Of a stretch of 5,590 nucleotides of DNA, positions 1,757 through 4,745 are shown one piece after another. The notes beneath the pieces were generated by a model that was not told the origin of the DNA, made no database searches, and saw nothing but the letters and a program-made list of their open reading frames with translations. Position 1 is the first letter of the stretch. Every line of letters starts with the position of its first letter. The stretch is from an uncultured Dorea sp. Lineage in GTDB: Bacteria; Bacillota_A; Clostridia; Lachnospirales; Lachnospiraceae. The stretch lies in assembly GCA_948468495.1 (NCBI GenBank), contig CAOKJI010000155.1:1-5590 (forward strand), written 5' to 3'. A program made the translations under genes and the position numbers.

Positions 1757-1778
1757 AAATACTGTTTACAGGTTGTTT

Positions 1779-1812
1779 AAAATCATCAGCCGGATTACCG
1801 GTTGATGATTTT
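1779..1812 (+). terminator. Rho-independent terminator after the MerR gene
   Basis: Bases 1779-1793 pair with 1798-1812 over 15 consecutive positions, 14 Watson-Crick and one G-U, around the loop ATTA. The stem has a CCGG core and an AAAA/TTTT base, followed by ATTTGCTTT. It starts 22 nt after the MerR stop. The symmetric A-run and T-run mean it could also stop transcription from the other side. Confidence 0.85.
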
Positions 1813-1830
1813 ATTTGCTTTGGGTATAAT
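1802..1830 (+). promoter_or_regulatory. Sigma-A-type promoter for the ATPase-nuclease gene
   Basis: TTGATG (1802-1807), a 17-bp spacer and a perfect TATAAT (1825-1830) put the transcription start near 1837, about 40 nt before the ATG at 1877. The -35 box lies in the right arm of the preceding terminator hairpin, so terminator and promoter share bases. Confidence 0.6.
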
Positions 1831-3701: not shown

Positions 3702-4376
3702 ATGGAAAGATATAAGCAGGAATTTATTGAATTTATGGTGGAGAGCAACGTATTGAAGTTCGGAGATTTTACATTGAAAAGCGGAAGAAAATCTCCTTTT
3801 TTTATGAACGCGGGAGCCTATGTGACCGGGACCCAGCTTAGGAGGCTGGGAGAATACTATGCGAAAGCAATCCATGATACATATGGTCTGGATTTTGACG
3901 TACTGTTTGGGCCGGCTTACAAAGGGATTCCCCTTGCCGTAGCGACGACGATGGCGATTAGCAGTCTGTATGGCAAGGATATCCGCTACTGCTCGAACAG
4001 GAAGGAAGCAAAGGACCATGGGGATGCGGGAATCCTTCTTGGTAGCAGCCTGAAGGATGGAGACCGGGTGGTAATCATCGAGGATGTGACAACCTCCGGC
4101 AAGTCGATTGAAGAGACGTTCCCGATTCTTAAGGCGCAGGGAGATGTGGAGATTAAAGGCCTGATGGTTTCGCTGAACCGTATGGAAGTGGGGAAAGGCG
4201 GGAAGGTCAGCGCGCTGGATGAGATTAAGGAATTATATGGATTTGAGACCGGCGCTATTGTAACGATGGAAGAGGTAGTGAAGTATCTGTACAACCGGGA
4301 ATGTCAGGGGAAAATTGTGATTGACGATACATTAAAATCAGCAATTGACGCATATTATGAAGAGTATGGAATTTAG
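3702..4376 (+). CDS. pyrE: Orotate phosphoribosyltransferase
   Basis: PyrE joins orotate to PRPP to give orotidine 5'-monophosphate and pyrophosphate in cytoplasmic de novo pyrimidine synthesis. The 224-residue protein matches the usual size (E. coli PyrE is 213). Visible landmarks are FGDFTLKSGRKSPFFMNAG (20-38), with the conserved LKSGRxSPFF substrate segment, and GPAYKGIPLA (70-79). The mobile catalytic loop is RKEAKDHGDAG (100-110, with K101, K104 and H106). The PRPP-binding signature is VVIIEDVTTSGKS (123-135, with E127-D128 and the TTSGKS loop). All key residues appear intact. The gene stands alone here without other pyr genes. It has its own promoter, and its stop codon TAG is the left boundary of the long hairpin element. 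With that element removed, the next gene would start only 54 nt after the stop, so pyrE was probably once co-transcribed with the membrane genes downstream. Confidence 0.97.
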   Translation: MERYKQEFIEFMVESNVLKFGDFTLKSGRKSPFFMNAGAYVTGTQLRRLGEYYAKAIHDTYGLDFDVLFGPAYKGIPLAVATTMAISSLYGKDIRYCSNRKEAKDHGDAGILLGSSLKDGDRVVIIEDVTTSGKSIEETFPILKAQGDVEIKGLMVSLNRMEVGKGGKVSALDEIKELYGFETGAIVTMEEVVKYLYNRECQGKIVIDDTLKSAIDAYYEEYGI

Positions 4377-4537
4377 AGCGTGCCCCCCAATTCATTCCTG
4401 CAATCTGTCGCCCCACTTCACACCAGATTTTACGCTGAATTTGGTCAATGTAGCCTACTACACCTCCCAAATCCAGCATAAAATCTGATGCAAATTGGGA
4501 CGGCATCTTGTAAAAAGCAATTTGGGAACACGCTCTA
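4374..4537. repeat. 164-nt MITE/ERIC-like palindromic element: one continuous 80-pair hairpin
   Basis: Every base i from 4374 to 4453 faces base 8911-i, without a single bulge, down to a 4-nt loop at 4454-4457. I count 58 Watson-Crick pairs of 80. If the minus strand is the RNA, a further 12 are G-U, giving 70 of 80. If the plus strand is the RNA, only two are added. The ends are TAGAGCGTG (4374-4382) and CACGCTCTA (4529-4537): TA outside a GAGCGTG inverted repeat, as expected from a TA target duplication (Tc1/mariner-IS630 type, or ERIC elements). The best internal arm is 4424-4444 against 4467-4487. No transposase is present and the minus-strand open frame across it has no credible protein, so it would be non-autonomous. 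It may act as a terminator or RNA-stabilising hairpin for pyrE, or encode an RNA on the minus strand. The structure is certain; the mobile origin is probable and the function unknown. Confidence 0.85.
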
Positions 4538-4592
4538 GAAGAGGTAAGAAAAAAGGCTGATTTTATAGAAGAAGACTAGGAGGGAATGAACA

Positions 4593-4745
4593 ATGAATGA
4601 GAAAGCATTTAAGACAATGGGGATTACCGGCGCCGCCAGTATTGCAATCGGGGTTGTGATGATTGTGACTGGCATTACGACGGGAGTGATTGCGGTTGTC
4701 TGCGGAGGACGTCTGCTGAAGAATAAAGAGGGCCTGATGTTCTAG
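4593..4745 (+). CDS. Small hydrophobic membrane peptide (50 residues)
   Basis: The frame starts at ATG 4593 with a strong AGGAGGG (4578-4584), 8 nt upstream, and ends TAG one base before the VanZ-family start. The peptide begins MNEKAFKTMG, has a Gly/Ala/Val/Ile-rich stretch from about 10 to 38 (ITGAASIAIGVVMIVTGITT, then GVIAVVCGG), and ends with a basic, polar tail RLLKNKEGLMF. The core is long enough for one membrane helix or a tight two-helix hairpin. The strong ribosome-binding site, the near-abutting next gene and the clean membrane topology argue that it is real. I recall similar small proteins beside pyrE/vanZ-like genes in Lachnospiraceae, but cannot verify this here and know no function. 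Confidence 0.78.
   Translation: MNEKAFKTMGITGAASIAIGVVMIVTGITTGVIAVVCGGRLLKNKEGLMF

What the first reader, a model, noticed from the sequence alone, without database searches (positions are those of the whole stretch)
4374..4537. A 164-nt bulge-free hairpin whose imperfections favour a minus-strand RNA
Each base i in 4374-4453 faces 8911-i in one unbroken register. Of the 22 non-Watson-Crick positions, 12 (4383, 4384, 4397, 4398, 4411, 4419, 4420, 4423, 4433, 4438, 4447, 4448) are C-A or A-C on the plus strand and therefore G-U wobbles on the minus strand. Only two (4400, 4408) favour the plus strand. Random decay of a palindrome should give both kinds about equally. The bias suggests the hairpin is kept as a folded RNA, or folded single strand, of minus polarity. 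It might be a non-coding RNA, an RNA-processing or stability element, or a mobile element whose folded strand is the recognised form.
Basis: seen in the sequence. Interest (0 to 1): 0.78.

Follow-up and report, generated by a model that had tools for sequence, protein, structure and literature searches.

The report
Folding transposon fragment in gut bacteria
The hairpin is a 164-base hitch-hiking transposon fragment found many times over in some gut Lachnospiraceae bacteria, and one of its two strands has kept its ability to fold far better than the other as the family evolved, for a reason not yet known.

Summary
The hairpin is one copy of a MITE-like family of gut Lachnospiraceae, usually 164 nt. 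Copies sit in CTAG-like sites with a duplicated TA; three occupied/empty pairs support insertion. An 883-bp IS5-family insertion sequence with the same 17-22 nt ends occurs in two carrier genomes and is the likely mobiliser. The window copy lies in the TAG stop codon of pyrE; 26 of 115 other copies end a neighbouring gene the same way. The strand bias is family-wide: G-T exceeds A-C on the same strand in 113 of 113 sampled 164-nt copies. It is not strand-biased mutation: recent changes are symmetric (WC>GT 60, WC>AC 70), changes inherited by three or more copies are not (22 against 6; G-type against C-type p = 1.3e-4). Arms co-vary at 29 of 80 pairs. So folding of the window-minus strand was kept, or folding of the plus strand avoided, in the lineage that spreads. 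Whether RNA or single-stranded DNA matters is open: no promoter-like site was found, and orientation follows replication (77 of 106). Pfam DUF6783 looks like this repeat, translated.

The parts
4374..4537 (-). MITE-like element, 164 nt, 80-bp arms and 4-nt loop; the better-folding G-rich strand is the minus strand
4374..4375 (.). TA target duplication, left copy; with the next G it is the TAG stop codon of pyrE
4536..4537 (.). TA target duplication, right copy
4374..4392 (+). terminal inverted repeat, left (begins TAGAGCGTG)
   Evidence: sequence; same terminus as the IS
4519..4537 (-). terminal inverted repeat, right (begins TAGAGCGTG on the minus strand)
   Evidence: sequence
4454..4457 (.). 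four-base loop
3702..4376 (+). pyrE-like phosphoribosyltransferase gene; its stop codon TAG (4374-4376) is the first three bases of the element
4375..4506 (-). reading frame inside the element that matches Pfam DUF6783 weakly here (below the curated cut-off) and strongly in other copies; read as a translated repeat, not a gene

Best explanation
SHOWN: it is one copy of a non-autonomous, MITE-like element of 164 nt whose two arms pair along their whole length. The family is multi-copy in some Lachnospiraceae and sits mostly in CTAG or CTAA sites. In three occupied/empty pairs the empty site carries one dinucleotide (TA in two, CA in the relative of the window) where the occupied site carries two. 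INFERRED: an IS5-family transposase, made by an 883-bp IS with the same ends, moves it in trans by cutting at its ends and joining them at the TA of CTAG; when CTAG spans a stop codon, the element's own TAG restores the stop. SHOWN BY COMPARISON: within the lineage that spreads, inherited changes are mostly those after which the G-rich strand (minus in the window) still pairs through GT or carries GA/GG, while recent changes in resident copies show no strand preference. INFERRED, my leading mechanism at roughly 0.3: the G-rich strand's fold is kept because it acts as RNA during propagation or establishment of new copies. Single-stranded DNA at the replication fork, and avoidance of folding by the other strand, each stand close behind (0.22 and 0.25).
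For: Empty sites: window against L001; G107:3479966 against G304 with 98.0 and 98.5% identical flanks, and G107:1103069 against a paralogous stretch in L179, 81 and 74% identical. Copy number: 47 distinct places in G107. Termini: 90 of 115 copies are TA..TA, base -1 is C in 108 of 115, base +1 is G in 90 and A in 21. IS partner: inverted ends 883-886 bp apart in G107 and G184; DUF4096 and DDE_Tnp_1, NCBIfam IS5_3; ends shared over 17-22 nt, and C before and G after the TA in 5 of 5 IS copies looked at. Fold: GT > AC in 113 of 113; covariation 29 of 80 pairs, 0 of 500 shuffles reach it; tips 60/70 against branches to three or more copies 22/6 for GT/AC, and 20/17 against 10/1 for GA+GG/CT+CC, Fisher p = 1.3e-4; 13 of 16 pairs that switched between GC-type and AT-type show a GT state, 4 of 16 an AC state.
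Against: No transposition was observed. The transposase was found in 2 of 11 genomes examined at E 1e-15, so G001 (the window's nearest relative, a fragmented assembly) and G005 carry copies without a detected partner. One further paralogous comparison, G184:C5:8272 (77-82% identical flanks), does not show a clean TA duplication, and 25 of 115 copies lack TA at one or both ends (recount). RNA: 0 promoter-like sites, and tandem neighbours run mostly against the folding strand (39 of 59). Orientation follows replication (35 of 45 by map in G107; 77 of 106 by local GC skew; G258 alone 12 of 20, not significant), which an RNA role does not predict. The plus-side strand also co-varies (36 of 80 pairs), as any conserved palindrome would. 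Parsimony branches are not independent trials. Branches to exactly two copies give 16 to 6 for GT/AC but 1 to 2 for GA+GG/CT+CC and were left out of the Fisher test. The window's own subfamily was left out of the main tree because of a register shift; with it and masked columns GT/AC is 17 to 6, p = 0.035.
Confidence: 0.6

Rival explanations
1. The exposed strand must NOT fold. The transposase or the fork places the C-rich strand on the lagging-strand template, where a strong hairpin would be cut or deleted; C-A, C-T and C-C mismatches on that strand are kept because they weaken it, and GT/GA/GG on the other strand are only their complement.
For: The G-rich strand lies opposite the leading strand in 35 of 45 G107 copies and 77 of 106 by local skew. 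Where transcription gives no cue or the opposite cue the fork still predicts orientation: 14 of 17 by map, 23 of 31 by skew, copies inside called frames left out. AA/TT mismatches are 20 at tips and 0 on branches to three or more copies.
Against: It does not explain why pairing is kept at all: 83.3% of cells paired against 36-48% when slid, and 31 GT>WC restorations on branches to three or more copies. The fork-against-gene subset is small, and local skew is partly set by genes.
Confidence: 0.25
2. The folded G-rich strand acts as single-stranded DNA during transposition coupled to replication, for instance by bringing the two ends together.
For: Mismatches that persist are GT, GA and GG, which recalled thermodynamics ranks as the more stable ones in DNA; orientation is tied to the fork; the G-strand is more stable with DNA parameters in 6 of 6 subfamily sequences.
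Against: The G-strand is mostly on the leading-strand template, not on the exposed lagging-strand template as for IS200/IS605 (passages of PMC5371812). IS5 transposases are DDE enzymes that work on duplex ends (recalled).
Confidence: 0.22
3. Frozen ancestry: the founding element happened to carry these mismatches and later copies merely inherited them, or one strand mutates differently.
For: Some mismatch positions are shared widely: 20 and 21 by 6 of 6 subfamily sequences, 68 and 69 by 5 of 6.
Against: GT sits at 26 pair positions in at least 2 of 25 diverse copies against 4 for AC, and new GT states arise on branches to three or more copies 22 to 6. Mutation bias is not seen in recent changes at paired positions: 46 against 51, 60 against 70. 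At unpaired, G-rich positions recent changes run the other way, 6 against 17.
Confidence: 0.13
4. Protein coding: the element encodes DUF6783 and the strand bias follows from codon constraint.
For: Frame 1 is open on the G-strand in 55 of 115 and on the C-strand in 88 of 115; the 162 inserted bases are a whole number of codons; Pfam DUF6783 matches.
Against: The largest subfamily (50 copies) has a consensus stop in the DUF6783 frame. Substitutions within subfamilies show no clear codon phase (93, 67, 75; p = 0.10), and subfamily sequences that differ by 16-33 bases differ by 11-20 residues in that frame.
Confidence: 0.04

Closest known systems
RUP, Correia/NEMIS and ERIC type bacterial MITEs (review PMC2229807: outline and section 5 part 1 seen)
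   Same: about 105-155 bp, stem-loop from end pairing, many copies; RUP inserts at TA and is argued to be mobilised by an IS with the same ends; some have open frames that fuse to genes; ERIC effects depend on orientation
   Different: Partner here is IS5-family with CTAG targets, not IS630-Spn1 as argued for RUP; inherited changes are biased to one strand's fold, which the part of the review seen does not describe
IS5 family, IS427-type insertion sequences
   Same: DUF4096 plus DDE transposase in two frames, CTAG surroundings, shared ends
   Different: The element itself has no transposase; blastn at E 1 or less found only its ends related to the IS, apart from one 11-nt match
Rickettsia palindromic elements (same review, same section)
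   Same: palindromic repeat with an open frame, found fused to genes
   Different: here 88 of 115 copies are not inside a mechanically called frame; 6 of 115 have a frame open for more than 150 nt on each side through the element
Rfam microRNA precursors MIR6140, MIR2630, MIR5565
   Same: long hairpin of similar size
   Different: scores 43.7, 31.1 and 29 against gathering scores 140, 144 and 80: shape resemblance only

Membership tests
MITE (non-autonomous DNA transposon) | short, no transposase, terminal inverted repeats | tested here: met
   113 of 115 sampled copies 164 nt; only frames of the window inside it are short and hit no transposase; inverted ends
MITE (non-autonomous DNA transposon) | target duplication and empty sites | tested here: met
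   three occupied/empty pairs, one with CA in place of TA; 90 of 115 TA..TA; one further comparison unclear (G184:C5:8272)
MITE (non-autonomous DNA transposon) | autonomous element with the same ends | tested here: met
   G107 and G184; not detected in 9 of 11 genomes
MITE (non-autonomous DNA transposon) | mobilisation in trans demonstrated | not testable with these tools
   needs a transposition assay
IS5 family mobilisation | IS5-type transposase in the partner | tested here: met
   PF13340, PF01609, NF033580; first frame 138.9 and second frame 109 bits against cutoff 110
IS427 group of IS5 | two frames and short duplication in CTAG | tested here: inconclusive
   two frames and CTAG seen; group label is recalled, with one passage of PMC9241763 linking two CDS to IS427
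IS630 MITEs (RUP, Correia) | IS630-type partner | tested here: not met
   the partner found is IS5-type
IS200/IS605-type elements | transposed folded strand on the lagging-strand template; no target duplication (second part recalled) | tested here: not met
   TA duplicated; G-strand opposite the leading strand, hence not on the lagging-strand template, in 77 of 106
microRNA precursor families of Rfam | score above gathering cutoff | tested here: not met
Stand-alone non-coding RNA gene | own promoter | tested here: inconclusive
   0 promoter-like and 0 terminator-like sites in 4200-4640; a simple sigma-70 scan only
Stand-alone non-coding RNA gene | detected transcript | not testable with these tools
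   no RNA data
Pfam DUF6783 | profile match above cut-off | tested here: met
   E 1.1e-25, 4.9e-29 and 1.6e-10 for three other copies; the window's own frame 20 bits, below the cut-off 22.8

The most novel reading that the evidence does not exclude
A MITE moved by a DDE transposase in which selection, acting only on the copies that give rise to new copies, preserves the fold of one named strand, as RNA or as single-stranded DNA. That would mean a step in its life cycle that reads a single folded strand, which is not part of the usual cut-and-paste picture.
Probability: 0.4. Interest if true: 0.8.

Novelty: new variant of a known kind. Interest (0 to 1): 0.55.

Why it matters
Bacterial MITEs are often treated as pairs of ends around filler. 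Here the filler evolves like a structured molecule with a polarity, and the contrast between recent and inherited changes separates mutation from selection without an experiment. It gives a testable handle on what MITE interiors do. It also suggests that a Pfam family (DUF6783) is a translated repeat, which would affect gene counts in gut Lachnospiraceae, and shows that many copies sit exactly on TAG stop codons and rebuild them.

Tried and rejected
Strand-biased mutation was tested and rejected at paired positions. Replication-driven GC skew of the host strand was rejected as cause: the host leading strand is G-rich and the element's G-rich strand mostly lies opposite it. Coding was judged unlikely. 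Rfam miRNA resemblance was rejected. Phage and plasmid carriage: no match in the phage or plasmid collections, and no exact match of one 25-base pattern in viral contigs. Hit counts count both strands of a palindrome; for G107 resolves 92 rows into 47 places, with 150 of 1191 candidates scored, so 47 is a floor. The ORF calls were confused by frames through the element and were replaced. Solved structures for the transposase's second frame: none by sequence. Defence-family scan of the AAA protein: two marginal hits only.

Literature: no paper holds DUF6783. Searches aimed at this family listed no paper whose title or shown start of abstract describes it; only open-licence papers are held and most listed ones were not opened. 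Seen in papers: outline and section 5 part 1 of PMC2229807, passages of PMC5371812, PMC4549789 and PMC9241763.

Sampling: 126 rows of the listing were typed (lower rows, below about E 1e-29, were not); 115 had DNA held with at least 30 nt on each side (recount): G107 45 of 45, G184 40 of 45, G258 20 of 20, G005 3 of 7, G001 4 of 5, G162 1 of 2, G230 1 of 1, G024 1 of 1. They are the best-scoring, full-length copies; shorter and degraded ones exist. Ranking by a model that scores G-U on the G-strand could favour GT; it would do so at the tips too, where no bias was seen.

Full report
WHAT IS THERE. The window is Lachnospiraceae-like DNA: the closest pyrE locus found is L001 (MAG iMGMC-378, by its name a mouse-gut catalogue, recalled), PyrE 94% identical, with neighbouring DNA 91-95% identical. 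Genes in order are a DUF218 protein, a MerR/GyrI-like regulator, an AAA protein, pyrE, a small frame without a family, a VanZ-like protein and DUF6142.

IT IS AN INSERTION. L001 has pyrE and the DNA after it but no hairpin between them: window GGAATT-TA-[element]-TA-GAAGAGG, L001 GGGATT-CA-GAAAAGG. The L001 dinucleotide is CA, so TA duplication is clear in the window only if one base has changed since. L001 carries a related copy elsewhere on the same contig, and its genome (G001) gives 36 matching stretches, full copies, fragments and opposite-strand hits included. Two further pairs show one TA against two: G107:3479966 against the matching site in G304, flanks 98.0 and 98.5% identical over 202 nt each, and G107:1103069 against a paralogous stretch, 81 and 74% identical. 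In the first, G107 has two copies sharing a TA where G304 has one, as if one copy landed on the terminal TA of the other. A fourth comparison (G184:C5:8272, 77-82%) is not clean. The remaining hits are tandem copies matching each other.

IT IS A FAMILY. A covariance model from 19 copies finds at least 47 distinct places in G107 (one search counts both strands). It finds the family in 20 of 299 sampled genomes of the same family and 2 of 291 of the class, one of the two being G107 itself (at most nine candidates scored per genome). G002 and G003, close by PyrE, have none at E 1e-5. Of 115 sampled copies with flanks, 113 are 164 nt. The base before is C in 108, and the base after is G in 90 or A in 21, so the target is mostly CTAG or CTAA. 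Flanks reading C..A are met 19 times and their mirror T..G 4 times (p = 0.003).

THE LIKELY MOBILISER. Scanning G107 and G184 for the terminus gave inverted ends 883-886 bp apart. These enclose a two-frame transposase with DUF4096 and DDE_Tnp_1, named IS5 family by NCBIfam, the second frame one bit below the cut-off. In 5 of 5 IS copies looked at, C precedes and G follows the TA, and their ends match the element over 17-22 nt. The transposase was found in 2 of 11 genomes; the others may have lost it, carry a more distant one, or be incomplete.

STOP CODONS. The window copy begins with the TAG stop of pyrE. In 26 of 115 other copies a neighbouring gene ends exactly so (crude ORF calls of 60 aa or more). 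In the G107 tiles 10 of 289 CTAG sites lie at the stop of an ORF of 100 aa or more and 140 inside ORFs. The cut-offs differ and the elements themselves create CTAG, so the apparent enrichment is suggestive only.

STRAND POLARITY. In 113 of 113 sampled 164-nt copies GT exceeds AC on the strand that corresponds to the window minus strand, and in 28 of 29 copies, some of which overlap with the 113 (the exception, L323, is divergent and may be misoriented). Other mismatches lean the same way: GA/GG 568 against CT/CC 47 in G107 and 419 against 64 in G184. Subfamily consensus counts of GT:AC are 8:1, 7:1, 9:0, 11:0, 8:1, and 9:5 for a single odd copy.

MUTATION OR SELECTION. If one strand simply mutated differently, recent changes would show it. 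At paired positions they do not. Against subfamily consensus (three clusters of 9 to 50 copies), C>T plus A>G is 46 and G>A plus T>C is 51; at unpaired, G-rich positions it is 6 and 17. On a tree of 109 distinct copies without the window's subfamily, tip branches give WC>GT 60, WC>AC 70, WC>GA/GG 20, WC>CT/CC 17 and WC>AA/TT 20. Branches to exactly two copies give 16, 6, 1, 2 and 0. Branches to three or more copies give 22, 6, 10, 1 and 0. The G-type against C-type contrast of the last against the tips is 32:7 against 80:87, Fisher p = 1.3e-4. With the window's subfamily added and its shifted columns masked, branches to three or more copies give 17 to 6 (p = 0.035) and 12 to 1; tips give 49 to 60 and 15 to 14. 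So resident copies decay without strand preference, and the bias is in the lineage that produces new copies.

COVARIATION. In 25 diverse copies, chosen by me from 15 genomes or so and without the window's subfamily, 29 of 80 pairs change on both sides, and none of 500 shuffles reaches the observed values. The opposite strand gives 74.5% paired cells against 83.3%, and 36 pairs with changes on both sides. Of 16 pairs that switched between GC-type and AT-type, 13 show a GT state on the G-strand and 4 an AC state; GT is present (2 or more of 25) at 26 pair positions and AC at 4. Among the first 19 pairs, the terminal repeat, 3 of 4 switching pairs lack a GT state, as expected if the two ends follow the transposase rather than a fold (inference). 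Positions 20-21 (GG, CT), 68-69 and 72-73 (mostly GA, AG) are conserved non-pairs.

ORIENTATION. In G107 the GC skew turns positive at position 1 and negative near 1.7 Mb, taken as origin and terminus. The G-rich strand of the element is opposite the leading strand in 35 of 45 copies, and in 77 of 106 copies by local skew (G107 34 of 45, G184 30 of 40, G258 12 of 20, G001 1 of 1; nine of the 115 had too little flank). Where neighbouring genes are not in tandem, or run against the fork, the fork still predicts orientation (14 of 17 by map, 23 of 31 by skew; copies inside called frames left out). Orientation of transposons tied to replication is known for several IS types (passages of PMC5371812; the primary paper cited there could not be opened).

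HOW IT MOST LIKELY WORKS. Mobility: the IS5-family transposase acts in trans on the shared ends, with TA of CTAG as target (inferred from ends, flanks and empty sites). Fold: something in the propagation cycle selects for pairing of the G-strand, or against pairing of the other. I rank RNA first (about 0.3) because of the stepwise GC-GU-AU route inside the stem, with the anti-folding rival and single-stranded DNA close behind. No promoter-like site was found, and orientation speaks more for replication than for transcription.

DUF6783. Translations of the G-strand of three other copies hit Pfam DUF6783 at E 1.1e-25, 4.9e-29 and 1.6e-10, and 11 of 11 database proteins found with the window's frame carry that label. 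With a consensus stop in the largest subfamily and no clear codon-phase signal, the simplest reading is that DUF6783 is this repeat annotated as protein. Other members of DUF6783 were not examined.

LIMITS. ORF calls are mechanical. Tree branches are not independent trials. Orientation was assigned by a model that includes the structure, though the score gap between strands is about 52-72 bits for the G107 copies.

Noticed in passing
window 4375-4506 (-); Pfam DUF6783 (PF20574) appears to be the translated G-rich strand of this repeat rather than a protein family.
   Followed up: partly
L201 and L207; L104-L107: Short, internally deleted versions of the hairpin with similar ends exist, for example forms of about 80 nt in G001.
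   Followed up: no
L165 (G107:C1:2917400-2921800) and L166 (G107:C3:4500-9600): Pairs of the same terminus 2.4 kb and 3.0 kb apart: an IS copy next to or interrupted by a Mutator-type transposase gene, and a stretch of an 11.5 kb contig with inverted duplicated genes and the same kind of transposase.
   Followed up: partly
element positions 20-21, 31-32, 41-44, 52-54: Internal mismatches, mostly G-A or G-G, are spaced about 11 bases apart in the outer two thirds of the stem, close to one helical turn.
   Followed up: no
window 1778-1813: A separate short 16-bp inverted repeat with a 4-nt loop just after the MerR-like gene; it may be an ordinary terminator, not tested.
   Followed up: no
L008 7637-7785: In [Clostridium] symbiosum ATCC 14940 a related copy also lies shortly downstream of pyrE (6703-7368) but further away than in the window.
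   Followed up: no
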